A stretch of DNA of 64,000 nt, taken from positions 640,880 through 704,879 of the forward strand of contig JAACJM010000024.1 of the NCBI GenBank assembly GCA_013368315.1, read 5' to 3'. Below are positions 25,116 through 54,791 of the stretch, piece by piece; position 1 is the first letter of the stretch; the number at the start of each line of letters is the position of its first letter. The translations under genes and the position numbers were made by a program. The notes under the pieces were generated by a model, which saw only the letters and a list, made by a program, of their open reading frames with translations, had not been told where the DNA came from and searched no databases. This stretch comes from Tetrapyrgos nigripes. Taxonomy: Eukaryota; Basidiomycota; Agaricomycetes; Agaricales; Campanellaceae.

Positions 25116-25117
25116 TA

Positions 25118-29643: not shown

Positions 29644-29714
29644 ATCACTCCTCTGCTACGTCGTCAGTAGGAGTAAAACAGTACACTGGACAGTTAAAGA
29701 ACAATCGATATAGT

Positions 29715-32700: not shown

Positions 32701-33749
32701 TGAAAGGCATTTACGCTAAGTTAGGTATCACTTCGGCACTTAGTACAGCTTATCATCCACAGACAGACGGTGAAACAGAAAGATTCAATCAAGAATTGGA
32801 ACAATACCTTCGAACCTTCTGTAACTATCGTCAAGACGATTGGGTCAAATACCTACCATACGCCGGATTCTGTCATAATACCCGGGTTCACTCAGCGACT
32901 GGGAAATCGCCGTTTGAATTACTCCATGGATTTTTGCCCCGACTATTCCCTTCCATCAATCCAATTTCACACGTACCAAAAGTCGAAGAACGCCTCCAGA
33001 ACTTGGATGCAATTCGAGAAGAACTAAAAGCAAGTCTGGCGACGGCAGCTGAACTGATGAAAGAGCAAAACAAGGACTACAGGAACGAAGGGGCGAAGTT
33101 TAAGGTTGGGGATAAAGTGTTGCTGGACGGGAAGAATCTGAAAACGACGAGACCGAAAGCTAAGTTGGCAAATCGTCGTCACGGACCATTCGAAATCACT
33201 GACGTTATCAGTGAAGTCAATTATCGACTCAAATTACCGAATGGCTGGCGCATTCACCCAGTGTTCCACGCCTCACTCCTATCGCCATACAAAGAGACCG
33301 AGGCCCACGGAGTGAACTACCCAGGAGAACCTGCTGAGCTGCTACCCAAAGACAACGAATACGATGTGGAAGCAATTCTAGATTCAAAACCAACGAGAAA
33401 CCGACGGGGAGTACAATACCTTGTCAAATGGTTGGACTACGCTGACTCGGAAAATTCATGGGAACCAGCATCAGGATTGACGAAGGTGAAGGAGATGATT
33501 GAGACCTTCCATCAACAACATCCAGATGCATATCGACCCAAGAACCTGATATGTCCGGGAACAACGGTGCGTTCACTAGGGATCGCCATGGAAGACATAT
33601 GGCGAAGTACCCATGTGCTTCAAGCGAAAGCACAACTCCGAGGAGAAACACTGTTACGAACCGTGGGTATCTTATGCCCGCCTTCACACCCCACTCGGCA
33701 ATCGAACTCAGACTTTTGTCATCACTCATCGATCGCATTCCCTCGTTAA
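29715..33749 (+). pseudogene. gypsy B Pol (protease-RT-RNaseH-integrase-chromodomain), three in-frame stops
   Basis: A single frame of about 1344 codons is interrupted only by TGA 30336-30338, TAA 31260-31262 and TGA 31446-31448. Domains in order: protease (ANALIDSGAEGIII), RT ([27 protein letters not shown], active box [10 protein letters not shown] intact), RNase H (VEVDASDYTTGGIL), integrase zinc finger (HHDSLTAGHPG, CATCQLTK), integrase core (VTVDCSTK, ISDRGPQFAS, HPQTDGETERFNQE), a GPY/F-like region (HGPFEITDVISEVNYRL) and a chromodomain (YDVEAILDSKPT, QYLVKWLDYADSENSWEPA). The chromodomain, which would direct integration by binding modified histone tails, places the element among chromoviruses. 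It reads in a different frame from gag. Confidence 0.93.
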
Positions 33750-33826
33750 CGGCGTCTACTGTCAAAACCATCTTCGGGGACAACTTGACCGTCCATTCAA
33801 AATTCCCTCCATACAGACAAACAAGT

Positions 33827-33834
33827 ATAAAAAG
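33827..33834 (+). promoter_or_regulatory. TATA box upstream of the extra ORF in gypsy B
   Basis: TATAAAAA at 33827, about 95 bp before the ATG at 33923, followed by a C/A-rich leader (CTCACCTCACACTACACC). The spacing suits a separate transcript for the extra ORF. Confidence 0.45.
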
Positions 33835-33922
33835 ACTCCTCTCCACAACGAAGAAAGACAGAACTCAACCACATCCTACCAGTTTCACCTTACTCACCTC
33901 ACACTACACCTTCATCATAGCC

Positions 33923-34438
33923 ATGTCAACCACTTCCTCCACCAACACCAACGTGAACGACGCACTCCCAACCAATAGGGGACGTTGCACCTATGGAACC
34001 CGTTCCGGACATCGATGCCGAATGGCGAAACAACACGCAGGACCTCACAATGGGTGTCAACGCTGCACGTGGGGAGGAGAGGATGGACCAGGACGGTGCA
34101 GACTGGGCAGAGGACATAAAGCCCGTTGTGTGGTACATTGGACGTCGCTACGTGCGGAACATAGAGGAAATCTAGGATGGGGAGACGCCAGCATATGGGG
34201 GGCAGACAACGTTGTACAATGGAACATGGACGACAATGGAGGAGGATGGGGGACGGCTACCAACACAACAGAGTGGGGGAACTTAGACTGGAACGACCCT
34301 AGATGGGAGATTGGAAACTACACCATAGATTGGGACAAATATTGGCTGAGCCAAGGGGATGTAGACAGACGACTCCGCAAGCAATGGGCGGAGCATTGGA
34401 AGACTGGATTGACGAGCTCCGGTGAAAGCTCGTCCTAA
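33923..34438 (+). CDS. extra ORF of gypsy B: Cys/His- then Trp/Asp-rich protein, unknown function
   Basis: This intact 171-residue frame lies between pol and the 3' LTR, where env-like or accessory genes sit in other retroelements. Residues about 21-75 are rich in Cys, His, Gly and Arg (GRCTYGTRSGHRCRMAKQ, HAGPHNGCQRCTWGG, GRCRLGRGHKARC). The repeated spacing around HAGPHNGC suggests a small metal-binding fold. The second half is Trp/Asp/Asn-rich (WGDASIWGADNVVQWN, WGNLDWNDPRWEIG) and acidic. No signal peptide or membrane segment is seen, so it is not a classical envelope. The frame upstream is also open back to 33551, but the ATG after the TATA box and leader is the better start. It has no stops although gag and pol of the same copy have four. 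No known family is recognised. Confidence 0.7.
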   Translation: MSTTSSTNTNVNDALPTNRGRCTYGTRSGHRCRMAKQHAGPHNGCQRCTWGGEDGPGRCRLGRGHKARCVVHWTSLRAEHRGNLGWGDASIWGADNVVQWNMDDNGGGWGTATNTTEWGNLDWNDPRWEIGNYTIDWDKYWLSQGDVDRRLRKQWAEHWKTGLTSSGESSS

Positions 34439-34449
34439 AGAGGGGGTAA
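34436..34449 (+). promoter_or_regulatory. polypurine tract of gypsy B
   Basis: AAAGAGGGGGTAA lies immediately before the 3' LTR and would prime plus-strand DNA synthesis. It overlaps the last codon of the extra ORF. Confidence 0.85.
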
Positions 34450-34950
34450 TGTCATGAATCGTCTCCCACCTATTCATTTCCTTTCTATTCTTTTCCCTTT
34501 ACTACCTATTTCCCACTCTAACCCCATAAACATCAACCATTTCTCATCATCGTCTATAGTTACCATCTCTCTAGACCTATGACTCATATTCCTATCTCCA
34601 TGGACATTCTCACTGTCAATCACTCCGTATGATCCAGTACCTTCATCTATCCATATTTGACTCATTATTCTCTCGCCCTTGACATTTCCACATGATACCG
34701 TCTATTATTACTTACTCTTTCCCATCTGTTCATATTTTACTTATATACCTGTGATCTTTGTAACCCATTCCTTAGTTCGTTCACTTCATCTCCGCTCCGT
34801 ACTCTTACTACGCAGTGTAGAGCCTAGTCAGCTTACTTTCTCTCTATCTCTTTATCTCTCTATCTCTCTTGATCAATCTATTCTCTTGTAAACCGGCTTT
34901 TTCGTATTGTGTGACTTGGGTGGTTATCGAGTGTAACGACAACCTTAACA
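34450..34950 (+). repeat. 3' LTR of gypsy B
   Basis: 501 bp. It differs from the 5' LTR by G-to-A at 34788 (in a CpG) and at 34947 (end reads CCTTAACA). It is followed by the TSD ATTAT. Confidence 0.97.
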
Positions 34951-35521
34951 ATTATAAGTACATATGTTTCCGAAGTTTGAAAAATCCATGATCAAGAAGG
35001 GGAATTTGATGTCCAGTATAGGCCTTGTGGGACTGGGTGACAGAGATAGCATGTAATCCTGAGCTGTGTTCAGAAATGGAATGGGATGCCCAAAGATATT
35101 TGAAATTTGATGGTGAGAAATGGGAGTATTTCATAGAGGAGCCTTGGACAGCTGATGCCTGGTGGCATATTCAGGTAAGTCAAGAGATTGGCCTCAATTA
35201 ATACAATTTAATTTCAAGAATTATTGCAGTCTGAACTTCCAGCAGATGGAAAACCATTTTTCATCATTCTATATGCTGATAAAAACAAGCTCTCATCATT
35301 CAGTACTCAGAAAGGCTACCCTGTCATAGCTCATTGTGCAAATTTAGCATCTCACACACGCAATGGTGTTGGGATTGGCAGTGGTCGTGTTGTTGGATGG
35401 CTTTCTATAGTCAGGCTGTGTTCAGTTATTAATCTATTATATTTGCTGAAACAAAATTCTAGGTTGATGAAGATCCAGCGCAGTCCAGTAAAATTCACTT
35501 TGTGAATTTCAAGAATGCAGT

Positions 35522-36093
35522 TGTCAAGTCCATGCAGATACCCAATGCTAGGAAACATCAAGGACCCAGATGGAAGTCTTGAGTGGATTGGATGGAGATT
35601 CCGAGTGGATCCAGATAGGAAAGAGCTTATAAAGATAAATAGGGATTTCAGTCAGAAAGACTGGGAAGCTCTAGGGAACCATTGAGGAAGGATAGGAGAC
35701 CAGCTTTGTCGATTTTGCACTTAAGCTATCTACTACAAACTTTCTAGCTTAAGTACTACTTCAGAGAGCATAGGAATTAGATAGGAAAGGATCGGAGATG
35801 AAGGGAAATATAACTATAGCAGGAAAGGTGAAGGGGAGCACCTTATAAGGAAAGTGGAGCTATGAGATATGGATTGGAGATGAATCGGATATGAATCGGA
35901 AATGAAGGTGTGAATAAGGAAAAGGGGAAAGATCGGAAAGCAATAGGAAAGTAATGGAAACTAAGACTGTACTGGAAAGTCATAGGAAAGTACTGGAAAG
36001 TAAGACTGTACTGGAAAGTCATAGGAAAGTACAGGAAAGTAAAAGGGTACTGGAAAGCCATAGGAAAGTACAGGAAAGTGCATAGATCTTACA
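35522..36093 (-). repeat. solo LTR, gypsy family A (TSD GCAGT), in a Plavaka exon
   Basis: 572 bp starting TGTCAAGTCC and ending GATCTTACA, with GCAGT duplicated at 35517-35521 and 36094-36098. Removing it and one TSD copy rejoins the Plavaka reading FKNAV/WHAVFEKI exactly. It is nearly identical to the copy at 14189. Confidence 0.95.
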
Positions 36094-36561
36094 GCAGTGT
36101 GGCATGCAGTGTTTGAGAAGATTATTGAGTCAATCATTCCGCATTCAAGGCATGGATGGGCACTATTATGTGGTGACAAGATCCCAAGACAGCTCTTTCC
36201 TATACCCTTTATCTTATCAGCTGACTATGAGGAACAGTGAGTAACTCAAATTTTATTTCTTCAATCACTAATTATTGATATCTATGTTATGAGGTGTGTA
36301 ATGGCACTCATCCGAGGTCTTGGAGGCCTTTGTCCTTGTCCAAAATGTCTAGTCAGAAAAGAAGACCAGTCAAACCTTCTGGCCAATATCCAGCTACGTA
36401 CTCCAGATAATATCAGAACATTATTCCAGGAAATTGGTACATTGTCCAGACAGTCAGATAAAGAGAATATTTTGAAGGATCAGGGACTGCGTCCTGTTGA
36501 AGTAAGCAACATCTACTTTACTTTTCATCGTGTTTAAATTTTGAATTTACATGTGTCTAAT

Positions 36562-37018
36562 TGTGTGGTTGAGCCATCAAGTCTTACTCTCATTGCTCTC
36601 TAGCTCACACACCAATGATCTGATTTGACTCAGGGAGGTCAGGCTATTCAGTCAGACCCGATGAACTGGCAATACCAGCGAGAGTCTGATCTTACCAAAA
36701 CACTCCTCTTTGCATGCTCTCCCAACTCACCATTGTCTTAACCCTATCTCGTAGTACTATTTATATTCTGTACTTAGATCTACATACTTCATTCGTTCTA
36801 CTTGAACTTGTCCAGCATTTTTTCGTTTACCCTCCCACTTCCATCCCTTTTTACTTTCAAACCTGAGAGTGGCAACTTAATGTCTCCCTCTTAAACATTT
36901 GCTTCCCATGTAGCACTTCACCATCATTATATTCATCTTTTCTTTGGGCAGCCCCAGCCTTCAGGGTCGCCACATTTGGCTAAACCTTAACTCAACTTGA
37001 TTAAGTGAGACCGCGACA
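36562..37018. repeat. LTR-like insertion in a Plavaka intron
   Basis: The intron between the exon ending GLRPVE (donor near 36501) and the exon starting NVFWKLAHVD (acceptor near 37047) is about 545 bp, against roughly 55 bp for its neighbours. The extra block begins TGTGTGGTTGAGCC and ends GACCGCGACA, so TG..CA as in an LTR. It has no coding frame. The flanks (CTAAT on the left, ATTAG on the right) are not a direct duplication, so the exact borders are open. Confidence 0.45.
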
Positions 37019-38703
37019 ATTAGATATAAATAATACCATTCACAGAATGTTTTCTGGAAGCTGGCACATGTAGATCCATACTTTGGTTGCTCCTTTGATG
37101 AGCTGCACTTTGACAGCAGTGGATTATGGGGGGATCATTTGTTTGAGCAATTCAAAGAACACTTGAAATCTGCCACAGTTAATACTAGGTATTTGGAGTT
37201 TTATTTTTTTAATTTAAGAGTATTGAGTTTTGCCATTTAGATTCAGTAAAATGCCACGCTAGAGAGGACTCAATCACTTCAAATCTGTTACCAATACATC
37301 ATTTAATGATGGCTCCAAACATCGCGATATCTCCAAGGTTGGTGTTTCATTTCACATAAGTCTATGTTTCTGATCCCACATGTTCTCCAGATATTTCTGT
37401 TTGTTGCTCATGATGTATTTGAGCAGGGTGCTGCCTTCCAGCTGCTGAAATGCTTGCGTGCCTATCAAAATATGACTATGTATGCAGGCTTGGCAGTTCA
37501 AACCAAGGGCAGAATCTGACAAGGCAGAGACACTGTATTGGTTTTCCATTCCATGATCTCAGTTAGTATAGTTTTCACATTTTCATTTTTATGCAACAAA
37601 TAACTGTTCTTTCAGAAATATATCTCAATTACCAAAGATACAGAGTTTGGTGATAAGTCATGGAACTTTCCTAAAATGCATTATCACCAGCATGTGTTTG
37701 ATGAAATCCAGCAGAAGGGGGTGCAATCAGTGTATGGGACCAAGCCCAATGAAAAAATGCATGGGTCACCCCGAAAATTTTACCACCAGAGGACAAATTT
37801 TAAAGAAGTTGCAGATCAGGTCACATTTCTACTATTTTATCTTGCAAGCAATACTCAAGTATGCAATCTCCAGATACTACAAATCGAGCACCAGTTTATG
37901 GTTGCTACAGTTATTTGCACACAGTTGGATGTCCTTGATGAATATAACAGCACAGTCAACAATGAAGAGTCAGAAGAGCCCAATATTATTTCAGGAGAAG
38001 TACATGGAGACAACCATTTCCAGATTGGCTCTAAAAAATCCTCCATTGCTTTTCAAGAGCTCGAAGCATTGAATCAAGCAAATCCATTATTCTCAAGATT
38101 TCAAATTGAATTGGGCACCTACATGACAACCTTCCTACAGGCGTACAACATTCAGCTGCCCCGAAATCGACCAATAAAATACAGTCCAAGTGATATTGTA
38201 AGTCATACATTATTCTTCATGTATATATTAATTAATCAACAATATACTAGATTACTCCATTTCAATTTTTGAAGGTCAACTATGAATTGATGGAGACGTG
38301 ACGCACAGTCACCGATTATTTGCGATGTAATCCAGATTTTCACCACACTCCAAGATATGATTTTGTGCTTTACCAAAAATCAGAGGAGCAGTTCAACTTT
38401 GCACAGCTATTATACCTATTCACCACAATCATTAACGAGAAATCCTACATCATTGCTTTTATTCAGCCATACAAAGTGGTCAACCAGCAGCCCACACAAG
38501 ACAGAAGACTAGGACTCATCCATCTCGAAAAGGAACAACCAGAATTTATCCCTGTAGCCTCAATCATATGTGGAATTTTAGCACCTGCCGTTAATGATGA
38601 TGATCCTCTATCTAGTGACCATTTTTTATTTGATCTCGTATATGGTGATATTTTTTTACGAATGAAGAGTATGTACTCAGAGTATACTGACATAGTATCT
38701 TAG

Positions 38704-39596
38704 ATAGAAATGAATTCATCTGCATTTTATGTACACGCTATTGCCACAATTTGGCCACAATTATATTTCTAATGATATACCTCTCCTTGCTTGAAATGCC
38801 CAAATTTTGTGAAAGAGATTCACCCTACATTGTGAAAAGCTCGGGTAAGAGTCTGACTCATCAGTACTGGTACATGTCAGAATTTAGAAGCCCACACATA
38901 CAGGTGGGCGCTGTACCTGACTACATACCTGTAAAGTATAATTTATTAGTTGCTTTCAATGTTTTTTGTGGCCAATAACACATCTGGCCATGTGGTATAC
39001 CTAAATATGGTAGCTAATGTTCACACGCCAAATTGTGGTTGAACGCAAGCTAAAAAACCAATGCTGATTCAACAAATAGTTCCCTATGTATAGTGCTTTC
39101 TACTACATAAAATCTGTAGACATACTTTAGCCCAGACAAATAATCGCCAGGGGTACAGTAGTGTACTATATAATTGTACCCCTTCTGCAAGACCTGTGGA
39201 AACCCATACCCATCTGACACAGGTACATATGTACAGGTATGTTCAGAAGTACCCCTAGGACACCCATGCAACTCAATAACCCTAGATTCCTAGAAGACCT
39301 GGATATGATTCAGACACTGCAAAACATATTCTGAATTTCATAAATATTGAAGGCATGAGAAAGATATTGGATATTACTGTGACAAGCAGATTTGCTGCCT
39401 TCTTGTCATTAATAGGTGTAGTTGTGATAGCCGTAATGTATGTACTGTTCCAAGAATCAGCACATTTCATGGAAAATGGAGCTTAAGATGTAATAATACA
39501 TGGACTCAAACAAAACCTTACATATGTGCCTCAAGGCAATTCTGACTTGATCATAAACCACAACCATCTTAACACTCCTCCTTCCAGTATCTCACA
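38704..39596. other. stretch between Plavaka and the next gene, no supported gene
   Basis: It contains a hairpin GGGGTACA..TGTACCCC at about 39155-39183. It also contains a short + strand reading near 39300-39485 with a hydrophobic segment (RFAAFLSLIGVVVIAVMYVL) that ends at TAA 39484. The latter could be a fragment of a membrane protein. The terminus of the Plavaka element should lie here but was not recognised. Confidence 0.35.
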
Positions 39597-40622
39597 ATGT
39601 CATCTACCCCTCCTACTGACATACAGGACAGAAACGATGACAATGATCTCATACCAATCATACTCCCCACTCAAACCGCAAATCCCACTTTACTATATGA
39701 GGTATGTTACTGACCTCATGGCTGACAATGTCACCATTGCCACTGATATCAGGCACTGAAAAAGTGCCAGCTGCAGATACAAATGTTGAAAGATCGCAAG
39801 GCCAAGCTCCGAACTGCTAATGCCAATCTCACTGCCTCCCTTCAGACATATGAGTGTGGTCCAGGGCGAAAGCATAAGTCCAACATTGATGCTGAACTCA
39901 GTGTTTATGAGGACCATATCATCACTGCTGGTAAACAATACTGCCTCATGGTTGAACCCTGGATCAATGGCAATCTTTTTCAACAAGCTGCTCCTTCTGA
40001 CACCTTGGGTGCGATTTCGTCTCAACACTTTGAGAGTTTTGAGACTTACCAATTCAGATATCTTCTTGAGCTACATCATTATCTTGCTGCATATCCACCT
40101 CTCTCAAAACTTGCACAAGATGTTCAGGCTTTTGGGCCACTGGTACGTAAATTTTGGTCATATTCTGAATGCATCTCATTGTTATTAATTCTCTGACTAT
40201 GTCATGACAGTATTATTTCAGGGTATTTTCGTTCATTTTCTGTTTCTTTTCTTCATCAGTCACTGCCTTTTGATCATTGTTCATCTTTTGTCCTATCTTC
40301 TGTTCATCTTTCCTTGATCATCTATGCACAGCTACTATCCCTTGTTTCATCATTTGTTCATCTTTTTATGATACATCTCTTACAGGGACAACAGGCTGTA
40401 CTTTGATTGTTCTGAACAGTTCTCTGATTCCTTTATTTGCTCTGCTCAGTTTTTATCTTTCTGTTCTGTGTATATAAGCTTAGAGTAGTAGCTCCCTAGT
40501 CCCCATCTTGACCTCTTCATCTTGGGACTAGGTGAGCATCTCATCATGTATTTCTTGTCTTCATTTAATATTAACTTCATCTTGGGACTAGTCTCTCATT
40601 GTTATCTGTCTACTGCTGTTCT

Positions 40623-40990
40623 TGTTAAGCAGGCATGGTACGGTCCTGTACACTACTAAACGCAGTGGCAACTACGCAACTTACCTGTGGATAGAGAGTA
40701 GCTTGTAAGGCTTGTAAGAGGCTTATTGAGCAATGAGAGTTAAGTATAAAACTTGTTATTTGGAGGACTATCTACGAGTCCTTATATACCTTTGAGGAGG
40801 TACAAATACATGTAAACTAATACTAGAGTAACAATAAGATTTTATTGTACTTGATAGTACAATGCTGGTTTCGTACACTATTGTTGTACTACACTTATTG
40901 TCTATATAATCTTATTGTTCTATTTATAACTACTACTATTGTTCTACATAGATGATGTTGATGGCTGCAACTGAATGCGCCAATTCAACA
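40623..40990 (-). repeat. copia 3' LTR (left)
   Basis: 368 bp. It differs from the right LTR at five sites, four of which are CG on one side and TG or CA on the other. Confidence 0.95.
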
Positions 40991-41000
40991 CTCCCCCTTG
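40991..41000 (-). promoter_or_regulatory. copia polypurine tract
   Basis: On the minus strand CAAGGGGGAG lies directly before the 3' LTR. Confidence 0.8.
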
Positions 41001-42810
41001 CTAAGCAGCACGGTAGTGCGTGTAAGCATAGGTAGGCACTATAAGCAGCCATAGAAGGAAAGGATCTAGTGCCTCGATATTTTCGATGCGATTTATAGGA
41101 CTTTCTTCAATTATAAAACTGAAGTCCTAATTGTTTCCCGAACTTCTCAAACTTTACTCGATCTAGAGCTTTAGTGAGTAGATCTGCAGGGTTATTGCTT
41201 CCTTCAATGAAGAATAACTTGACTGTCTCGTCGATGACTTTTTCTCAAACAAAATGATATCGAATATCAATGTGCTTGGTTCGCTTATCCGTGACAGGGT
41301 TTGATGCAATAAAAATTGATCCCTGATTGTCACCGTAAATTGGAATAGTGTGGAGAGGATATTCAATTTCACTGAGAAGAGTCTTGAACCAGCATACTTG
41401 TCGACTGCAGTCACTAAGTGCCATGTATTCAGCTTCAGTCAAAGATAGGGCAACTGTCTTTTGTTGTCTAGACGTCCAGCTAAATGGTGCTTGGGCTAAT
41501 TGTAGAAAGAAGCCAGTTTGAGATTTGCAAGATCCAGGATCTGATCCCCAATCGGAGTCTGTATAGGCTGATAAGCCTTCTCCCCCTCGACCGTTGTATA
41601 CAAGAGCATATTTTCTAGTGCCAATGAGGTAACGGCAAATGTCTTTTGCCTTATTGTAGTGTTCTTGTGAGAGGTTTGCAGCAAATTGCGCAAGTTTTGT
41701 GACAGCAAAGGAGATATCAGGACGTGTTCCTAACATTAAGTAGAGTAAGGATCCGATTATCTCCTGATAACTTTGACGAAGAGTATAATTGACAGGAGCG
41801 TCTTCTGGAAGAGGAAGAGGGTGATAATTGGCGGGTAATGGTGTAGCAGAAACTTTTGCGTTTTGCATTCCATGTCTCTAGGATTTTATCCAGATAAGCG
41901 CACTGGTCTAAAGAGACTTTGCTGCCTTTCCTGGTAATTCTCATCCTAAGGAATTCTTTGGCATCGCCTAGATCCCTACATTCCCATCTCTTCATAAAGT
42001 TTCCTTTGAGTCGTAAGATTAAGGTTTTGTTAGCTCCACAGAATAGAGCGTCATCCACATAGACTACGGCAATAACGATTGAATTTTCAATAAGATCATT
42101 GTTGGCGTCATAGCGTTTGTGAATGAAGATTCTGGCGTCGGAAATGATTCGTTTAAAACCAAGTTCCGCCATGGACTTATCAAGACTTTTCCACCACGCA
42201 AGTCCTGCTTGTTTGAGTCCGTAAAGAGCACGAAGAAGCCGGACGACTTCATCACAAAAATGTCTGAAAACTTTTAGGCAATATAATGTACCAAAATACT
42301 AGTGAGATATTACCTGTGCATATAATGTACTGGGCCAAAATTATGTGGCATTGGAAGTATGGGAATTAAAAAGGAGGATTGTAGGCAGATGTAAGAAGGC
42401 CAAAATGATTTTGAGTTATTACAAGCCCTGATAATAACAGGGGGTGTTCTGGTAAGCTCTTAAAATGTCCCATTATATTCTTGGACATTATAAAGATGTA
42501 TCAGGAAGAGGGTACTTATATCACAAAGAATCATTTTGGTCCTTATAAGAGTTGGAAATTATTTTACTCCTTATATCGCGCCAGGTTTCTGTTGGGCTCT
42601 TATGAAGGGTTGCAATAAAGCAAATGAAAATTTCAGAATACTAAGGTAGTACAAGTAGTGACAGCGCAGTAAAACTTTTGTAATGTGAATTGTATACTAA
42701 TTATATTCTGAATTTTTGTGGTATGAAGATGTGAAGGGAAGGCGAAAGGCGTGATGATGTTCTAACAAAGACAAGAGTTGGGAGGAGAAGGATCTGAATG
42801 CATACGTACA

Positions 42811-44241
42811 TTAATCTCATCCCCAGAGATCTTGGACGGAGACCAATGAATCAACGCTGCATTCTCATACACTCCATCAATCATCAACGTTCCTCCTCGA
42901 CGAACATAGTTGATAGCATCGTTGGCAATTTTTTTGACACTGGTTGCTTCGATTTAGAAGAAACAAAATAATCATAACATCCATCAGTAAATCTCCATAG
43001 TCTCCGAGATAGCTTTGAGGTTCCTTCATGTAGAAGGATCAAGACAAGTGTCATCAAGGCCTAGTGGTACTCACAACTGCATCAAACCCATACCCATCGC
43101 CTTCTTCAACTCTTCCCACTGCTGCCCAGGATTCTGTCTGTCCAACTCAACATACTCGTCCGCTGCGTTCGACGTTTAGGCTATATCCGTCTTGATACTT
43201 TTATTCGCAGCCAGAACGATACCTCAGAGAGGCTCCGTTGAGTTTATGGAGTTGTGTTAGGATGAGACCAGTTGGGCCCGGGGTTAAAGGGTTGAAGCTA
43301 GAAACGTGATGAAGGGATTTAATCATACCCACCTGCACCCATCACCAGCACTTCCGAACCCACAGGTACGGTCCACGAGGAGGCTCAGGTCAAAATTCTT
43401 TCGCACTCCCTCCATCGGGGCTTCAAATTGATTTAATTTAAAGCAAATTTCGGTGTCCAGCTGTCATTTAAGCTCTCCTTTCGGGCATGAAATATTTTCT
43501 CAAGGGCGAAATGTCTTGTTTTTCTCCTAATCCTCACAATTCACTAGTAATTTGTGTGCTCTCTGAGGTGGAAAAACACCCCAGTTTCAATCAACTTCTA
43601 ATACCGATTACTGATAGTTGTGTATTGTAGGAGCAATTATACCTTCTCGGATACGTAAAATCGAAGTATACGGAATGGGAGGGAACTTGTGCAAGTTGGA
43701 CCGATCCTTTAGTTGTTTTTCCGTGAAAAACATACGCAGGAAACATCAGAGAATATATGGCAGGGAAAGACTTGGAGGAAAATGTCATCTCGGCGAGGAT
43801 ATTACCTCAAAAATGGTGGATTTACCCAAGATTTACCGATGAAATGACATCCGGGTGCTAAGGGAAGCCTTCGTAAAGGCCGAGGTGCAGGCGTACCAAA
43901 GAATTTTGACCTGAGCCTCCTCGTCAACCGTACATAGGCAATATTAGTTTATATACTCCATGGATAGCACACGCAGCAGGCTCGATGAGACTAGCTTCTT
44001 CGTCTGTAAGGTTGTTGAGTTTGAAGCATTTCGCTGCCGCGTTATTGCAGATGTGAGAAGGAGTCAATCATTATTAGAGGGAAAGGATAGAAGAAAAGAA
44101 CATTAATTAACAGAAAGGAAAGAAAAGGAAAGACACGCACACAACAGTATACTCTGCAAATCCATCAGGAACAGTCAAGCCCAAATTGTTAAAGCTCTCG
44201 CAGAATTCGGATTTGTCTCGATGGCAGTAGAAGTAGCTCCC
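42811..44241 (-). pseudogene. zinc-type medium-chain alcohol/polyol dehydrogenase fragment
   Basis: Minus-strand exon pieces in the correct order: GSYFYCHRDKSEFCESFNNL then GLTVPDGFAEYTVV (structural zinc region, 44241-44141); [29 protein letters not shown] (near 44043-43950); then the MITE; VPVGSEVLVMGAG (Rossmann glycine motif, split by an intron with donor GTGGGT); PTGLILTQLHKLNGAS; LAANKSIKTDIA then a stop and TSNAADEYVELD; and KKIANDAINYVRRGGTLMID, GVYENAALIHWSPSKISGDEIN ending at a GTACGT donor near 42811. The N-terminal catalytic-zinc part and the C-terminus are missing. Retained introns show that genomic DNA was captured. The family oxidises alcohols or sugar alcohols with NAD(P). The closest subgroup looks sorbitol/arabinitol-dehydrogenase-like, but this is not certain. 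Confidence 0.8.
43366..43933. mobile_element. MITE inside the dehydrogenase fragment
   Basis: The left arm 43366-43402 and right arm 43897-43933 are inverted repeats of about 37 bp. They share GTACGGT and a perfect 26-bp core starting CGAGGAGGCTCAGG. It is 568 bp long and carries no transposase. It separates CAIHGV from VPVGSEVLVMGAG of the dehydrogenase. No convincing TSD was found, so the ends may be off by a few bases. Confidence 0.75.
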
Positions 44242-44495
44242 GCACTATCATCAAAGGCATTGAGACGTGAAACGCGTCTCAATACGTCAAGACATGTCAA
44301 GACTGAAGACTAATGTACACGTGCGTGGTACACAGGTTGACGCATTGTGTCAACACGTCGGTTCCCCGTCAGTGTCCCGTCAACACGCTCCCTCAGGCTC
44401 CTTCGCTCTTCGCTCTCCCTTCTCTTTATTTCTGCCTTTCCTTATATACTCGGACTGATTATCGTATTCCTTTACTTCACGTATCCATCTTTGTC

Positions 44496-44971
44496 ATGGA
44501 TCTTGAGACAAACGCGCAATGGCTTAGCCTTCATGGGGTTCCGCATGATAACCGTTTCAGACAAAATCGCCAGCTGAGCAAGCAGAGGTATGCGATAGGA
44601 TTTCCTTGACGTTTGGATGTATCAGGACTTTACCTTTACCAAATGTCGAGTCTTATGGTGTGCTCCAGACCGAATCCATCGAAATATATACTGCCAGCCA
44701 AGGAACTACTTGCAAGACATCCGATACTACTCAGCTCATACCCAGTGGACCTCAAGCAGTAGAGGAGACTCGGAACAAGAACCTAATTGAGGCCTTTGGA
44801 CGAGAGAATAAGGAAAGTGATTTTGTATGGGAGGAGGTACGGGAAAAGTTCCGATGTAGTCACTTTCCGCTTTGTATAGTGGATTTGTATGTATTTTCTA
44901 TCGTGTCTGTGTGTGGTCACTTTCCTCATTGTACAATGGAGCTGTGTGTATTTTTTGTTGCGTCTGTCTGA
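44496..44971 (+). CDS. small hypothetical gene in the TIR element, uncertain
   Basis: A CT-rich stretch and TTATATACTC near 44440 precede ATG 44496 (MDLETNAQWLSLHGVPHDNR). The frame reaches the second open stretch (RTLPLPNVESYGVLQTESIE, EETRNKNLIEAFGRENK) only if a 38-bp GT..AG intron (44588-44625) is removed, which is unusually short. The 3' end holds an imperfect 57-bp direct repeat (GTCACTTTCC..GTCTG). No family is recognised. It may be another captured 5' gene end. Confidence 0.3.
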
Positions 44972-45290
44972 GCAATGACTTTGTGGAGGTCCATTAAACA
45001 GAGACTCGGACACATTCGGTTCGGAGTTTGAGAGTCATTTACGCTCACTGCTCCGCCACCGTTCAGAGGGTTTGTAACCAGTAGAAAGGCATGCGTCATC
45101 CACCACAACTGACACAATATTGCCCTGGCACACCCTAGCAAAGCAATTTGCCCAATCGAGTAATGCCGTGCACTTCCCTGTTATGGATAGATGACGACGA
45201 CGACGTCACTGCATCACGTCATCTTCCCTTATTCGGTAAGAGCGTGCTCGATCTGCGCCCTCTGAAATCTCGGCCATTCCCATCTGGAGC

Positions 45291-45376
45291 GTATATAAGG
45301 GCCTAAGGCCTGGGGTTTCTACTCGACGCCTTCATTCCTTCCCCTCCCTCCCTCCCCTCCTCTGCCTCTACGACCA
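45291..45376 (+). promoter_or_regulatory. promoter-like fragment (TATA box, CT block, ATG)
   Basis: GTATATAAGG at 45291 is followed by a C/T-rich run (CCTTCCCCTCCCTCCCTCCC) and ATG at 45376, which opens only about 30 codons (MQLSVYLRVKVTRSH). The layout is that of a fungal core promoter and first exon start, without a gene after it. Confidence 0.45.
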
Positions 45377-45479
45377 TGCAACTCTCTGTCTATTTACGTG
45401 TCAAGGTCACACGCAGTCATGCTCCCACACACAAACACGTATTGATTGAGTTGGTGGGCAGGCCGTAGCCACCCTGCAT

Positions 45480-46235
45480 AAGGCTACACATATGTCCTTT
45501 CCACCACAATTACACTCAAATACACGCTTTTCCTCGACAGGAGGCGTGGATAGGGGCTTACACTGCACTGCGGTTTGTTCGTCGTCGTGTATGATAGAGG
45601 TACATACATACATACACGCTAAGTGGTGCTGGAAATTTTATCATACTATGCCTTGTTCTACCACTTACCAGTAATCACCTTACTGCTGCCACTACGGATG
45701 TTTAGTATACATACAATTTCATACTGTCCCCCTCTATACTATATTGTAGTCTACCCTCCTTAAATCTAATGAAGTCATTGGCCTTAATCTCATCGACGTT
45801 ATGGCACTAGCAAACATTATGATTTGAATTGCTGCAGATTCAATTTGAGCCTTCTATTAGCTCGCATCATTGCAAATATCAGATAGATCTTAGGTCTTTT
45901 GGTATCTCCTACGCTCTTGTCAGTACCAAGTTTCTTCTGAGGCTTATATGACCTTATAAGCGCTCAAAATAATTCTGTGAGGTATAATGCTCGAAATAAC
46001 TCTTGAGCTTGTACCTAGCTATCATATCTGATACAACTTTGATGCATTTAGGGATCAGAATTAATCTGGCCCTTCTAAGGACAATAATAATTTCAGATTT
46101 CTACCGTACTTTTAACTATTGTATGCTCATAGATGAAAACCACCTTCCCTTTTAAGCTGCTACAAGATTCCTAAGCCTTTTTATTTCTTATCTCCCATTA
46201 GGGCTCTGGTAAGCACCTATCAGGGCTTACATTAA
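45480..46235. other. right part of the TIR element, no gene
   Basis: AT-rich sequence without a supported ORF. Words such as CTTATAAG and CTGGTAAGC recur in the left 500 bp of the element (42400-42600), suggesting subterminal repeats. Confidence 0.35.
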
Positions 46236-49200
46236 GCTGGACATTTTCATGATGTTTATGCTCTTGTCCCTTTTCTTTAAAGGCTTCTGGTTGTTCCATA
46301 TAGATTTCTTCATCGAGTAAGCCATATAAATAGGCTGATCGGACATCGACACCAGACACGTGCCAACCCTTAAGTGCAGCTAAAGTGAAGATTAAGCGCA
46401 CAGTCTCGAATCGAACAACAGGCGAATATACTTGATCAAAGTCTATGCCTTCGATCTGTGAAAAACCTTTTGCAATGAGTCTTGCCTTTTTATGACCATC
46501 AGACTTGATGTTGAAGACCCATCGGTTTTTGATGACTTTCCTATCTTTAGGTCTTTCAACCAATTCATAGGTGTCGTGCTTGCGAAGAGCCTCTAGTTCT
46601 TCACGGCAAGCGACTTTCCATTCCTCCTGCACATCTTTAGGTAAGAGTGCAATATCTTTGAATGTCCATTCATGAATATTACGAACATTCGGTTGATTCC
46701 CATCATTCTTCGAAGTAACTTTCTGAATAAGCAAGTGGGAATCGATTTCTCCAGGAGCAACTGCCTGCATAAGCAAGAAGTTTATAGATACTCCCCCTTC
46801 CCGGCATGGTTCTGCCATATGTTCTGATTCAGGGCGTGCAGAGTCATCACTCTCAGCTTGCTGCTCCCCCTGGGGTGTGCTTCCAGATGCAGAACTAGGT
46901 CCGGGAACCTGTTGCTCTGCAGCTTGTTGACGTCGGTGTTCTCTCCAAGCGTCTCTCTCTGCTTTAGCTTTTGCTTCCGCTCTTTTATCAGCTGTGATTT
47001 GAGGTTCAAGATCACGTGTAACTTGTACAGGGTGTTTATCTCCATACCGTTTGTTTGGTTCACTAACACGCTCGCTTCAATGTGTTGGTTCTCCGTAATC
47101 TCGTCTTGGTCTAGTGACTTTTCGAGGTGCCTCAGGATGTGGTGTCTCCCTTGGAGGTGGCGTTATAGGCCTTCTTGATTCTAAGTCACCATCTGGGGAC
47201 GAAGGCGGTGGATCCTGTTCAGGTTCGTCGTCACGAAGCTGATCAGGTCTCCTTATGGAAGGGATGCAAGGAGGACGATGATCAAAATCTTCATCATCAT
47301 CGTCAGGGATTGGTTGTGGTAGAGGAGTGTCATCGCTTTGCGACAACTCAATAGGAAGTTGTTTCGAACCACGAGATTGAGTTTTACATCGAGGAAAGAA
47401 GTCTTCCTCAAACACGGCTTGCGGGGATGTAAATTCTGCATTCTTTGTTCACATGAAAAGATTTCCACTTTCTCCTGGTGCTACACCAAGATACGTCATG
47501 AGTTCTGACTTGGAAGCGAGTTTGTTCTTTCGAGTTTCCTCGGGTTTAAAGACATAAGCTCCACAGCCAAAAACTCGCAAATGATTGATACGTGGTTTGT
47601 CCTTTTCAAGCATTTCAAATGGAGTTATCCATTTGTGTTGTCGTAAGGGAGTACGTCGATAGACATACAATCCATGACAGACAGCATATTCCCACCAAGA
47701 TTCAGGTAGACACGCTAGCTTCATCATTGCCAGTGCCTTATCCATTAGGGTGTGTATAAAGCGCTCCGCTCATCCATTCTGTTGATGAATGTATGGTGCA
47801 CTTTTAAGGATTCTAATACCCTTCTCGAGTAACATTTCTCGGTAGGTACCTTTGATGAATTCCCCACCCATATCAGACATCCACTGTTCGACTTTCGTCT
47901 TATATTGAGTTTCTACCATCGCAAGGAACTGACGAGTGGCAGTTAGTGGTTGTATCTTGTCTTTAAGAAATCGTACCCAAGCATCTGAAGTGTAATCATC
48001 AAAGAAGATGATTATATACTTGTACTTGTGGTAAGAGATCATGGGGAATTCCTTCAAATCTGTATGGATAATTTGGAAAGGACGAGTAGCACATCGTTGG
48101 TTAGGAGGGTAAGCCTGTTTGGGAGTTTTGCCTTCAAGACAGCCTTTGCACAAAGGAAGCTCCTTCGGAATGATGAATTCAGGAGTGCCAAGGGTGTGTT
48201 GTCGGACATGTTTTAGAACATCACGAGAGGGATGTCCTATACAACGATGTAAGATCTCGTAGTTGATAAGATAAATCAAAAGATTGGCTTTAGAAGCGAC
48301 AATTTTCGATTTGTGTGGAAGATAGTATAGTGTTTCTTCCGGTATACGCTTTGAGAAAGTCAAGAATGTTGTATTTCTCGAAATGGTGATATGATCAGAG
48401 TTACCGCGCATAAACATGTTGTCATTTAAGAATTGACCAACAGATAAGAGTCGTTGATTTAGATCGGGAATGTAATAGACCAGATCTAATTTCATAACTC
48501 TTTTACGTTGAGAGATCAGGACTGTTCTGGATGCACGAATATTCGTGAATCCATTGGCAGTTTTCACTGGAATTGGTTTTATATAACTCAATTCAACAAA
48601 GTCATTAATGTCGAACGTAAAATGCACTGATGCTCCAGAGTCAAGTAACCATCCATCATTGAAGTGGATTTTGACAGTATCAGATCTCTTCTTCTTACAC
48701 TTCTGGCATAATGAAAATAAAGTGCCACAGGCACATAAATATTTATTGTTGCCGCCAGGGCTAGTGTACAGTTCATTATAAATAAAAGGGGTTGTTAAAC
48801 CCAGAGGAGCGGTATGTAATAAATATATACATGAAGAACCTGCTTCCATATTACGAGCTGCTGGAAAAAGCGCATCAGTACTTTTATTCATAAGATCTGA
48901 AGTGAGATCTGACCTGAGATAACCGTTGTCCATGCCAGACACCTCAGAGTCTAGGGACCAACCATAATTATTTGCGGCATTGACGGTAACCATGGCAGGT
49001 GTAGAAGGTCGTGGACTTGGAATTCCATCTGACCAGGTTGCCTCTTCGGGATCTGTAGTGTGGCTCATCCTGCTGAGCGATCGCGGAGTTGACATATACT
49101 CGAGGTCGCTGGTGCTGGATAGGCTCGGAGACATGCTCCGGAGTTCTGGCATTGAACTCGGAGTTGGGACCCTGGATGGTAATTCCTCCTCCATTTCCAT

Positions 49201-51323
49201 TCCTCCTAGTCCTACTGTTGCGTCTCTCTGCCAATCGAGCAGCTCGTCGTACCTTCCATCCTCGTTTTCGAGATGAGGAGTTAGCCATTCCCATCCCGTT
49301 GAAGTCGTTCCAGGTGTTGGGCTTGCAACACGGCTGGAGGGTAAGGATTGAGTGGTCATGCCACTGGGATGTGCAGGCAGTGAGCCACTTTGCATCTCGC
49401 TGCGGGCTGCAGCAAGGCGTTGGGCCAGAGAAAGAGTGCCCGTTGATGCACAGGCATTCACTACTGCTCGGAATGGAGTTGCTCCTTCCCCATAGATGTG
49501 GAGAGGGTCCTCGGGATTCTGGAATCTCTCCCCAAGGTGAATTCCGCACTCCATTATCTCAGCAGCAGGATCCGAGGCAAGACAGTCGATAAGTGGAACA
49601 GGGGTCCTTGTGTCCTGCGGTACCTTTACACCTGACTCCGTCATTGTGGAGCCAAACACACTTCCGAGTTCCGAAGTGTTCACCAGAGTGTCCTCGTTCC
49701 AACTGGCATCTTCTCCCTGAGCGCATCCCATATCAGCATCTGAATCGGTCTGAGTTCCGACCGAACGAGTGAAGGCATCATTCCAGTTGTCATTACATCC
49801 CCAACCATCAGAAGATGATTGAAGATTATTCCAATAGATGCGTTCCGTGAGAGTGCATTTGGGACGAGGCGCAGGGGTAAGGGGGGTGAAAGAGGAAAGA
49901 TCAGGGTGAGACATGACGACATCCTCAAGAGCAGCAACAGTCTCACCAGATGGTCTCGCGCCAATATCGCGTGCAAGATTGATAGCTCTTTTGGTACCTG
50001 TGAAAAAGGTGTCAAAAGGCTTTTCCGTTTCCATGAAGAATGGCTTACGGGAATCAACTGCAGCGGGCGTGTCGACGAAGGTGACTGTGTGCATCATGGG
50101 AGACATATCCCCATGCACGAGATGTGCCTGGCCCTGTCTCTTGGCCTGTTTGTTTTTTCCAGCTCAACCTCCTCAACAGAAATGAGCTTTGCCCTTTCCC
50201 TTTCCCTTGCCTTTTCCTTTATTATCTCCGTTATTGCTGCTGCTGCTGCCACTAGGGCGCTGCTGCTGCTGCTATTGGAAACTAGGATTACCGTCCTTTC
50301 GCTTGACAGCTGAAAGATGGTTGGCCTGTGGTTTTCCTTTGAAAGCCCCTTGGCGAGATTCCCAGACATTGACAATCTCGCTTTGCAGTTCATCAAGATC
50401 TTGATTGTCGATTTGTGAGATAGATAATTGAGTATATTGATTAATGATATACTCATATCTGGGAGGGAGTTTCGATATGATGAACATGACTATGAGGAAA
50501 TTGGGAATTTTCGTAATGGAAACGTTTGGAGTTGTGGAGTCGGTAGTATCAGTAGAGATACCAGCAGCACTAACCCTATCGAAGTGCATATGAATAAGCT
50601 TGATCGTAGCACTAGGATTAGCGTCGTTAGGAATGGTGATGGAAGTGGCACATTTAAAGTCGGTGTAGACTGCGGAAACACCAGGTTTCCCGTAGGCAGT
50701 TTTCAGAGTAGTCCAAATTTCTTTGGCACTAGTCATACCAAGTGTCTTCTGACAAATAGCAGGAGAAAGACAAAGCTTGATAGACCCAATGGCCTTATCG
50801 TTCTTCTCATCCCAGTCGGCCTGTTTCTTTAGAGCCACCGTGATAGCCTCAGCTTGAGCCGCCGTATCTTCAGCAGATAGAGGGGAGACAGTACTCACGG
50901 TGGCGTCGCTAGGGCGATCAGAGCCAAGGACTGAACTAAGTCCAGTAGCCTGGAGCCAGGAGAGAAGAATGTCGGCCCAGATGTTGAAATCAACACCGAC
51001 GAAGACGGGGACAGTGGTCATCAAAACGTTGGAAGACATCTTTGATAAGTTCTGGGAAGGTCAACTGTCAGCATTTATCCATATGCAGCATAAGAAGGCA
51101 GCAATAAATGCGCCATGCGAAAGTGAAGAGAGGCAGCGATGAACGCGCCATGACAGTGACTACTCCCCTAGATTGTCAACAACTGCAGCTGGACGTATTG
51201 TCAAGCCATTAAAGGCAACGCACGCTGCCACAAAGGGCGCCACAGGCTGCCATGAAGGCACCATCCAGGTAGTATGCGAAGTCTATGGTTTGCAGCCATT
51301 GAAGGCGCTCCCAAGGGCCTTCG

Positions 51324-51335
51324 GGGCCCATAACC
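51324..51335 (-). promoter_or_regulatory. copia primer-binding site
   Basis: On the minus strand GGTTATGGGCCC lies directly next to the 5' LTR. It is complementary to GGGCCCATAACC, which looks like the anticodon arm of initiator tRNA-Met. Several copia-group elements prime from such a half-tRNA. Confidence 0.7.
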
Positions 51336-51703
51336 TGTTAAGCAGGCATGGTATGGTCCTGTACACTACTAAACGCAGTGGCAACTACGCAACTTACCTG
51401 TGGATAGAGAGTAGCTTGTAAGGCTTGTAAGAGGCTTATTGAGCAATGAGAGTTAAGTATAAAACTTGTTATTTGGAGGACTATCTACGAGTCCTTATAT
51501 ACCTTTGAGGAGGTACAAATACATGTAAACTAATACTAGAGTAACAATAAGATTCTATTGTACTTGATAGTACAATGCTGGTTTCATACACTATTGTCGT
51601 ACTACACTTATTGTCTATATAATCTTATTGTTCTATTTATAACTACTACTATTGTTCTACATAGATGACGTTGATGGCTGCAACTGAATGCGCCAATTCA
51701 ACA
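51336..51703 (-). repeat. copia 5' LTR (right)
   Basis: 368 bp, followed by the TSD GTTCT at 51704-51708. About 98.6 percent identical to the left LTR. Confidence 0.95.
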
Positions 51704-52723
51704 GTTCTGTCTATGCCTACTGCTTTGAGCCAAGTGTGTGCTCTTTACCACAGACTATTCTAGTTCATGAAGCACATCAGTAATGAAAGATCTCAGTCAT
51801 TGACAACTCTTCGCTCACTGGCACTGATTATTTTTGTGGACATCGACCTAGATTTGACCATCTGGAGTGCCAGTGCCGCAGTTGAACATGGAAAATCCAA
51901 CTGTTTCAAGTCACTTCTTTTTGATCCGACTTGAAAGAAGAACCGCTTCTCTCCCATCTTCTTCCCCAATCGTGACACAACCAAAACACCATTCATGAAT
52001 GAAATTCAACCTGCCATAAGTACATCCCATTGCTGTGCTCTACTTGATACCTACTGTTGACTATCATTTACTAGATGATTCATGTCTCACTCTTTGGAAC
52101 AACATCAATTAAGAATGCCACAAAATTCAAGTTTGAAAGCTGACTTTTGGGTATGCAGTGGGGAGTGAAGAAGGTCAATGTGTCATTGATTGCATGGTCT
52201 GGTGTAGTGGTGCAAGCACTAGATGTATTTCTTTTTCTATAAAAGGTGACACACAATTTTTTACTACAGCTAAAATTCCTTCTATCATCGGATTCTACAT
52301 TTTCAGAGAAGGGATCAGCAATGCAGATTAACTACAGAGAAGATTTCTATTACTTCAGAAAGCTAATTGTCAATAGTGAGCTGGAGGACAATGGTTTTGC
52401 AAAGAAATTATTTGGGTTTACAACAAATGTGTGTTCACAGGACACTCATCATTGGTAGATGAAGGGGCAGAGGAAGAGGGGCTCAATGATGAGGAATTTG
52501 ACAAGATGGAAGTGATGAGGCAACACATCCAAGTAGGAACACCACAAACAGTCATCTCAATGACTGCACAATCATCTACTGAGGTGATTTCAGGGAGTAT
52601 CACACACATTGCTGTGAGTCCTGAAGCCGTCGTCTCTGAGCCTAGCCAATCTGGCCAACCCATCCAACTGAATACAACCAATCTGCCCAATGTTGAACCT
52701 GTGCAACCTCACACTAGGTGCTG

Positions 52724-54165
52724 ATGTGCAATGCCAACAGGTGCTGATGTTGGAGTTGAGGTGTGTGATCCCAAGCCATGAGGACACAGTGGAAGGCGAG
52801 GTGCAAGGAAATGAAGGAAGGTGAGTTAATGTTGCAAGTAAATGAATTGACACCGTTGTTACATAGTGTACCAATTGCTGTTGCTGCTGCTTATTACTTT
52901 GATATCTACCTCTATGCTATGTACCAATGAAAGGAAACATGTCTATATTGCATTAGATGAGAAATAGCGTGTCTACATGACCTTTTGAGTGCACTAGGAG
53001 GAAGTGCCGTGAGCGTAGCCCATCAGGTGCTCTATATATGGAGCTGGTTCCCTAATATTTATAACAGCACATTGGCTTAACTGTCTATATCATCACTTTC
53101 ACTGGCAAAGTCCTCATACTCCATCCTATCTATCTATCAATCATATCCTCCCTTGCATTGAGACCTCATTTCACTGTCTCTGCAACTTCACATTGAGATT
53201 ATGTCATACCATCTCTGTATTGTACTATAGCGCTTCAGTGTTGTAGACACCCTACCCTGCCTGTGAGGACAATTGGCCCTATGACACTGTTGCTTGCCCC
53301 ACAGTATCCAGTAATTGGGTCCATGTAGAGCTACTACTCATTACACTTATGTAGCTTTTGTGGTGCAGTGTAATTCATTCATTTATTGGAATGGTTTAGA
53401 CTCTCAAGGGTTCAATCCTTCAATATGGCACTTAAAATGGCTCCTAACAATCCAGATTAAGGGTGCAATTACTTCTGGCGTCACGTAGTATGGGCCTAGC
53501 AACTCAGGGTCGCTGTTACAAGCCCACTGGTACAGTAAGCGATTATAAGGGTGGCAAGGCTGTAAGATCCGCCTGCCATTACTAAATTTCTTCTTGCTGG
53601 TGATGCCTTATAAGGCACTGGCCAGATTCGGCCATTGTAAGCCATTGCGAGCAGTTATCAGGCTGGTTTGATTTTTCTGAGATGCACCACTGGACGCATA
53701 AAATGAGGGAAAGTGGGCCAACGCTGCGTGTAGCACGATAACGAGGCCCAGAATGTGAGGGAACAGCATACCAGCACGGTATGGGTTTTGCCAACTGAAT
53801 CAAGCATAGCCACATGCAGAAATGGTGTTTAAACTTAAAAGGGCCTCGTAATCTAGGTGCCAGTGTGAAACCATGACAGCAGATTTCAGGTTACGTGAGT
53901 CGTGAGTTGAAAGTCATGAGCTACAACAAAATGCCTACTTTCAATTGCCATGCCAGCATATGTTATAAACTCATTGCGCAACTATTAGAACCTAGCTTTG
54001 AGAGCTGGGATAGTACTGTCCCCCTAATTCTGTGAATGGAAAGATGAAATTGATGTACAAATGTCAAAAGTGTTGTTCGACAACTTTACTTCTCTGATCC
54101 ATGTATTGATATTGGAGAAAAACTGAGGATTGCCTCAAATGGGACACTGGATAACTGGATTTGTT
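52724..54165. other. region without a supported gene
   Basis: After the split gene ends near 52723 there is no coding stretch with a recognisable domain. 53040-53300 has the look of an LTR or promoter (TATATATGGAGCTGG, then CT-rich repeats ATCTATCTATC). 53480-53830 is a mixed-composition block of unknown origin. Confidence 0.35.
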
Positions 54166-54170
54166 GGCGT

Positions 54171-54786: not shown

Positions 54787-54791
54787 GGCGT

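What the first reader, a model, noticed from the sequence alone, without database searches (positions are those of the whole stretch)
39597..52723. Five-level nest: gene intron > solo LTR > copia > TIR element with gene fragment > MITE
Borders are marked by duplicated targets or a restored reading frame for four of five layers: GACTA around the solo LTR in intron 2, GTTCT around copia inside the LTR, TT around the 4 kb element inside the copia RT (frame restored as GQEHK-VVRLL), and a 37-bp TIR MITE inside the dehydrogenase fragment. When the LTR and copia are removed, intron 2 shrinks to about 63 bp. This gives a clean relative chronology of five events at one site.
Basis: partly seen in the sequence, partly recalled or inferred. 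Interest (0 to 1): 0.75.

Follow-up and report, generated by a model that had tools for sequence, protein, structure and literature searches.

The report
Five transposons nested inside one another
In this fungal genome a jumping gene was hit by a second one, that by a third, that by a fourth carrying a copied piece of a metabolic gene, and that by a fifth; the layers are real, but the outermost 'gene' is itself a jumping gene and the layers do not give a simple five-step time line.

Summary
The nest is real. I also found the MITE's own 6-bp target duplication, CACAGG/CATAGG.

Two readings change. The outer 'gene' is ORF2 of a degraded PlavakaA DNA transposon (25093-53682), so the nest is transposon in transposon throughout; the 4-kb element is a non-autonomous PlavakaB, the MITE is IS3EU-like. 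And nesting order is not age order: the dehydrogenase fragment differs from its parent by K2P 0.11-0.12, the copia LTRs by 0.014, so the fragment was probably captured elsewhere before the copia landed. Whether the MITE arrived inside the element is unresolved.

Nested elements are ordinary. The less ordinary point is a fungal PlavakaB element carrying a host-gene piece whose parental locus can be named.

The parts
25093..53682 (+). Layer 1: degraded PlavakaA-type DNA transposon, host of the whole nest; left end TGTCGG, right end CTGAGA (C23 relative: TGTCGG..CCGACA); 2-bp duplication TG at 25091-25092 and 53683-53684
   Evidence: alignment borders shared with C23, C336 and C38 copies, duplications, transposase pieces
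26712..38694 (+). Plavaka transposase coding pieces of layer 1, split by a gypsy element and a short LTR-like insert (pieces 26712-26840, 35025-35174, 35221-35409, 35463-35522, 36091-36237, 37067-37165, 37631-37822, 37874-38200, 38314-38694)
   Evidence: tblastn with pieces of the C8 relative; PF18759 in C8 pieces above its cut-off, in the window's own piece 17.3 bits, below the 26.3-bit cut-off
39597..52724 (+).
40143..51763 (+). Intron 2 of ORF2, 63 nt apart from the insertion
   Evidence: 5 paralogues with an uninterrupted intron
40200..51752 (.). Layer 2: solo LTR of a Ty3/gypsy family, split by the copia (40200-40622 and 51709-51752); duplication GACTA at 40195-40199 and 51753-51757
   Evidence: family interior with protease, RNase H and integrase in the C144 copy
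40623..51703 (-). Layer 3: Ty1/copia element; LTRs 40623-40990 and 51336-51703 (368 bp, 5 differences); duplication GTTCT at 40618-40622 and 51704-51708
42250..46254 (.). Layer 4: 4,005-bp non-autonomous PlavakaB-type element in the copia reverse transcriptase; ends CATCA..TGATG; duplication TT at 42248-42249 and 46255-46256
   Evidence: termini as given for PlavakaB in PMC12730594
42781..44254 (-). Fragment of a zinc-type alcohol dehydrogenase gene, non-coding gaps included, inside layer 4; parent at G000:C7:986370-987239
43367..43932 (.). Layer 5: 566-bp TIR element, ends TACGG..CCGTA, IS3EU-like; duplication CACAGG at 43361-43366 and CATAGG at 43933-43938
   Evidence: features of IS3EU in PMC12730594
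26898..34950 (+). Independent insertion into layer 1, outside the given span: Ty3/gypsy element with chromodomain, LTRs 501 bp with 2 differences, duplication ATTAT

Best explanation
A PlavakaA DNA transposon, already a multicopy family in this genome, received a Ty3/gypsy element in an intron of its second ORF; recombination between that element's LTRs left one solo LTR (inferred). A Ty1/copia element integrated by reverse transcription into that LTR with a 5-bp duplication. A non-autonomous PlavakaB element, which had earlier and elsewhere picked up a piece of an alcohol dehydrogenase gene, then jumped into the copia reverse transcriptase with a TT duplication. A short IS3EU-like element sits in the dehydrogenase piece and entered it after the capture, before or after the jump. 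Shown: borders, duplications, families, uninterrupted relatives, parental gene. Inferred: solo-LTR recombination, transposase supplied in trans by larger PlavakaB copies, and that capture preceded the copia insertion.
For: Borders and duplications. Uninterrupted relatives: 5 of 5 ORF2 paralogues, 6 of 6 LTR copies, 7 of 8 other fetched copia 3' halves, parental gene. Outer family: ORF1 and ORF2 pieces in the same order and strand at 19 of 23 ORF2 places, the window included; termini and TG duplication; the C23 relative is 7,003 bp with a TA duplication. Layer 4: CATCA..TGATG with a 2- or 3-bp duplication in 6 of 8 pairs of ends examined, and PF18759 at 60.4 bits inside the 9.7-kb C143 relative. 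Capture: K2P 0.123 (564 sites) and 0.109 (290 sites) against 0.014 between the copia LTRs.
Against: Two of 8 layer-4 pairs of ends (C143 and C118, the large copies) show no duplication. The window's own Plavaka piece scores below the Pfam cut-off, and its right end reads AGA, not ACA. LTR divergence can be lowered by gene conversion, and the true source of the gene piece could have been a lost relative of the C7 gene, which would inflate the capture age. Four of 23 ORF2 places have no ORF1 match within 2.5 kb upstream.
Confidence: 0.9

Rival explanations
1. Strict outside-in chronology: five insertions at this one place, MITE last.
For: Each layer interrupts the one outside it with its own duplication; the parental gene lacks the MITE.
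Against: The dehydrogenase piece is far more diverged from its parent than the copia LTRs from each other, so layer 4 was built before the copia arrived. The MITE arms differ at 6 of 44 sites and its duplication at 1 of 6, which suggests, weakly, an insertion older than the copia; imperfect arms at the start would also explain this.
Confidence: 0.2
2. The copia carried the PlavakaB element in: the insert was gained in an older copia copy and co-mobilised, so layers 3 and 4 arrived together.
For: Element and copia borders would look the same; the copia is otherwise normal in size.
Against: 0 of the 7 other copia copies that align across the site has it. Of 36 fetched element-end loci only the window's own flank is copia reverse transcriptase; one other (L026) has a 71-80% match to the gag side of a copia. 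A roughly 11-kb template would have been needed.
Confidence: 0.05
3. The outer ORF is a genuine host gene that merely sits beside a Plavaka fragment.
For: Spliced structure and no Pfam match; 4 of 23 places lack an upstream ORF1 match.
Against: 19 of 23 ORF2 places have the transposase piece upstream in the same orientation, and the alignable unit ends at TGT..ACA-like termini with a 2-bp duplication in the window and in C23.
Confidence: 0.05
4. Assembly artefact: repeats collapsed or misjoined into an apparent nest.
For: All layers are repeats in a 587-contig assembly.
Against: Each junction carries the duplication proper to its own family, four kinds in all; misjoins would not make these.
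Confidence: 0.03

Closest known systems
Nested transposon clusters of repeat-rich genomes
   Same: Younger elements interrupt older ones, each with its own target duplication.
   Different: Here five superfamilies or lineages in one line of nesting, two of them Plavaka lineages; the depth is high for what I know of fungi, but I found no count to compare with (recalled).
PlavakaA and PlavakaB transposons of Agaricomycotina (PMC12730594, passages and section 3.2.2 read)
   Same: TGT..ACA with 2-bp duplications for layer 1's family; CATCA..TGATG with 2- or 3-bp duplications for layer 4; Plavaka transposase in relatives of both.
   Different: Layer 1 copies carry a second, coiled-coil-like ORF without Pfam match; layer 4 is non-autonomous with a gene piece. 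Phylogenetic placement was not tested.
IS3EU transposons (PMC12730594, passage read)
   Same: 6-bp duplications, TIRs over 30 bp, ends TAYGG..CCRTA.
   Different: The paper's families are from rust fungi and carry genes; here a 566-bp element without a transposase, whose interior has no other match in the genome.
Pack-TYPE / Pack-CACTA elements of plants (PMC8903248, PMC1947982: search listing and start of abstract only)
   Same: Non-autonomous TIR element with a host-gene fragment between its ends.
   Different: Fungal host and PlavakaB ends; one clear case only.
Gene-capturing Helitrons of Pleurotus ostreatus (PMC4289320, listing only)
   Same: Gene fragments captured by fungal DNA transposons.
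   Different: Rolling-circle elements; the element here has TIRs and a target duplication.

Membership tests
PlavakaA (layer 1) | Plavaka transposase domain PF18759 | tested here: inconclusive
   Two pieces of the C8 relative score 30.7 and 36.6 bits, above the 26.3 cut-off; the window's own piece only 17.3 bits; window pieces align to C8 at 38-78% identity.
PlavakaA (layer 1) | termini TGT..ACA | tested here: inconclusive
   C23 relative TGT..ACA; window left TGT, right AGA.
PlavakaA (layer 1) | 2-bp target duplication | tested here: met
   TG in the window, TA in C23.
PlavakaA (layer 1) | place in the Plavaka tree | not tested
   no tree was built
PlavakaB (layer 4) | termini CATCA..TGATG | tested here: met
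   window copy and 7 other pairs of ends.
PlavakaB (layer 4) | 2- or 3-bp duplication | tested here: met
   TT in the window; 6 of 8 pairs of ends overall, not in C143 and C118.
PlavakaB (layer 4) | Plavaka transposase in a larger relative with the same ends | tested here: met
   PF18759, 60.4 bits, in C143:175501-178600; interiors of C118 and C266 not fetched.
IS3EU (layer 5) | 6-bp duplication | tested here: met
   CACAGG/CATAGG, one mismatch; relatives C20 and C78 exact; C43, C166 and C94 gave no clean pair of ends.
IS3EU (layer 5) | TIR over 30 bp ending TAYGG..CCRTA | tested here: met
   TACGG..CCGTA; 44-nt arms with 6 differences.
IS3EU (layer 5) | IS3EU transposase in a relative | not tested
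   interiors of the relatives were not searched for a transposase
Ty1/copia (layer 3) | integrase before reverse transcriptase, paired LTRs, 5-bp duplication | tested here: met
   gag, rve, then RVT_2 along the minus strand; LTRs and GTTCT.
Solo LTR, Ty3/gypsy (layer 2) | single LTR with duplication; family with internal coding region | tested here: met
   GACTA; C144 copy interior: protease, RNase H, integrase in that order.
Pack-TYPE element (layer 4) | host-gene fragment between the TIRs, parent elsewhere | tested here: met
   42781-44254 against C7:986370-987239.

The most novel reading that the evidence does not exclude
PlavakaB elements in mushroom-forming fungi act as Pack-type carriers: their short ends mobilise, with transposase in trans, captured pieces of host genes. 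The dehydrogenase element here is one case and the C115/C136 pair, whose inside matches C168 at 75-78%, may be a second, so a capture route known from plant TIR elements and fungal Helitrons also runs through Plavaka.
Probability: 0.55. Interest if true: 0.55.

Novelty: new member of a known kind. Interest (0 to 1): 0.4.

Why it matters
It is a well-bounded natural stratigraphy in which every layer's uninterrupted counterpart can be found in the same genome, so it is a clean test set for nested-element annotation. It also shows why nesting order must not be read as age order when a layer is mobile with its cargo. The PlavakaB element with a named parental gene offers a case of gene-fragment capture by a fungal TIR transposon that can be followed up.

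Tried and rejected
Host gene as outer layer: rejected by copy number and co-location with a Plavaka transposase. Different cargo in one slot of each sibling element: my first reading was that C342, C18 and C77 carry other captured genes at the same place; one search showed that they share one similar stretch with each other, so it is more likely old element backbone, and I dropped the claim. C5 sibling: no clear parent. C115/C136 sibling: partial matches to C168 at two places, no Pfam match to the piece tested, so only a possible second capture. Homologues of ORF2 in the protein collection: 8 candidates, none at E <= 0.001. Dating the MITE from its arms and duplication: inconclusive. A terminal duplication for the 9.5-9.8 kb relatives C143 and C118: not found. 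Host: the copia reverse transcriptase piece's named hits in the listing include Ganoderma, Rhodofomes and Punctularia, so an agaricomycete is likely; the species was not determined.

Literature searches: 'Plavaka'+'transposon', 'Plavaka'+'nested', 'Plavaka'+'captured', gene-capture terms, nested-element terms, IS3EU. The listings showed no paper titled or abstracted as gene capture by Plavaka; I did not read those papers in full, and only open-licence papers are held.

Full report
What was checked. The window is G000:C24:640880-704879 of a 98.5-Mb, 587-contig assembly. Named hits of the copia reverse transcriptase piece include agaricomycetes; the species was not determined.

Layer 2 in layer 1. 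The LTR is flanked by GACTA. Five close paralogues of the interrupted ORF (C143, C23, C336, C38, C64) were fetched at the intron, and all five run through it without an insert; C64 reads ctGACTATTCTAG, the single-copy site. The LTR has at least 40 relatives (a capped list). The C28 copy has its own GTTCA duplication, and the C144 copy has an inside with aspartyl protease, RNase H and integrase domains in Ty3/gypsy order.

Layer 3 in layer 2. GTTCT flanks the copia. In 6 of 6 LTR relatives the two sides are contiguous with one GTTCTG. The copia LTRs are 368 bp with 5 differences, all transitions, 4 of them at positions that are CpG in one copy.

Layer 4 in layer 3. The 4,005-bp element is flanked by TT, and the short joined copia flanks read GQEHKVVRLL in frame. 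Of the 20 fetched copia LTR loci, 8 others than the window's own hold the 3' half; 7 of these align across the site without an insert at 96-99% identity, and the eighth, L020, stops matching 528 bp in, before the site. The ends CATCA..TGATG recur in 7 further pairs of ends. Including the window, 5 of 8 pairs have a matching 2-bp duplication, one (C351) a 3-bp one, and two (C143, C118) none. PMC12730594 gives exactly these termini and duplication lengths for PlavakaB (passages and section 3.2.2). The 9.7-kb C143 relative holds a Plavaka transposase piece at 60.4 bits. The window's element has none, so it would need transposase in trans (inference).

The gene piece. 42781-43366 and 43933-44254 match one place, C7:986370-987239, at 84 and 82%, which carries ADH_zinc_N pieces (24.8 bits over 97 aa and 20.9 bits over 52 aa, both below the 31.8 cut-off, as expected for parts of the domain). 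Non-coding stretches align as well, so the copying was at DNA level. The only other matches found are weak, at C110 and C73.

Layer 5 in the gene piece. The parent reads CACAGGCAACGCTAG without an interruption. In the window the same place reads CACAGG, a 566-bp element TACGG..CCGTA, then CATAGG. Two relatives with the same ends, C20 and C78, have exact 6-bp duplications; C43, C166 and C94 did not give a clean pair. PMC12730594 describes IS3EU with 6-bp duplications, TIRs over 30 bp and TAYGG..CCRTA ends. In one search every other match is confined to the terminal 36-57 bp, so 'MITE' is right only in the sense of a short non-autonomous TIR element.

Layer 1 is not a host gene. ORF2 has 23 places in the genome (24 matches). 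At 19 of these 23, the window included, a piece of a second ORF lies upstream on the same strand within 2.5 kb; C64, C143, C21 and C189 lack it. The upstream ORF of the C8 relative matches PF18759 Plavaka above its cut-off in two pieces, while the window's own piece is below it. Pieces of that transposase map in order from 26712 to 38694 in the window. The unit shared with C23, C336 and C38 runs from 25093 to 53682, with TG duplicated; the C23 copy is 7,003 bp with TGTCGG..CCGACA and a TA duplication. These are the features PMC12730594 gives for PlavakaA. The window copy's right end reads AGA instead of ACA, and its ORF2 has an in-frame stop in exon 3 that 4 of 4 compared relatives lack. The same Plavaka copy also received a Ty3/gypsy element (26898-34950, ATTAT), a 572-bp LTR-like piece (35522-36093, GCAGT) and a short TIR element (25135-25781, TA). 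Taking out these and the nest leaves 7,748 bp, close to C23.

Chronology. Shown by interruption: layer 1 before 2, 2 before 3, and 3 before the arrival of 4, unless the copia brought 4 along; none of the 7 other informative copia copies has it and no other fetched element end lies in copia reverse transcriptase. The building of layer 4 is another matter. The gene piece differs from its parent by K2P 0.123 (63 of 564 sites) and 0.109 (29 of 290), the copia LTRs from each other by 0.014 (5 of 368). On equal rates the capture is about eight times older than the copia insertion, so it happened elsewhere. Gene conversion between LTRs, or a lost closer parent, would shrink that ratio. The MITE entered after the capture, since the parent lacks it; whether before or after the jump cannot be told. 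Arm differences (6 of 44) and the duplication mismatch (1 of 6) lean towards before, weakly. So the nest gives a partial order, not a clean chronology of five.

Verdict. Observation confirmed, with the fifth border added. Interpretation partly supported. Ordinary in kind, unusually well resolved. The point worth following is gene-piece capture by a fungal PlavakaB element.

Noticed in passing
window 26898-34950: Young Ty3/gypsy element with chromodomain, LTRs 501 bp with 2 differences, ATTAT duplication, inserted in the same Plavaka copy; 29156-29291 is an exact 68-bp tandem duplication inside it.
   Followed up: partly
window 35522-36093 and 54169-54802: LTR-like 572-bp insert (TG..CA, GCAGT duplication) in a Plavaka exon; a relative at about 88% lies just outside the Plavaka copy.
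   Followed up: partly
window 25135-25781: 647-bp TIR element (CTATTCGTGAC..) with TA duplication in the left end of the Plavaka copy.
   Followed up: partly
window 39597-52724 and 22 other places: ORF2 is a regular partner of this Plavaka transposase with no Pfam match; a possible DNA-binding partner like TnpA of CACTA elements (guess, recalled).
   Followed up: partly
window 40623-40990 and 51336-51703: Four of five LTR differences sit at CpG, suggesting methylation decay rather than clock-like change.
   Followed up: no
L026 1906-3405 (C136) with L086 (C168): Sibling PlavakaB pair C115/C136 shares 75-78% stretches with two places on C168; possible second capture.
   Followed up: partly
window 59290-59787: HET domain (heterokaryon incompatibility) fragment on the minus strand.
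   Followed up: no
L030 (C143): The large PlavakaB copy on C143 ends about 1.1 kb from another copy of the same Plavaka ORF2.
   Followed up: no
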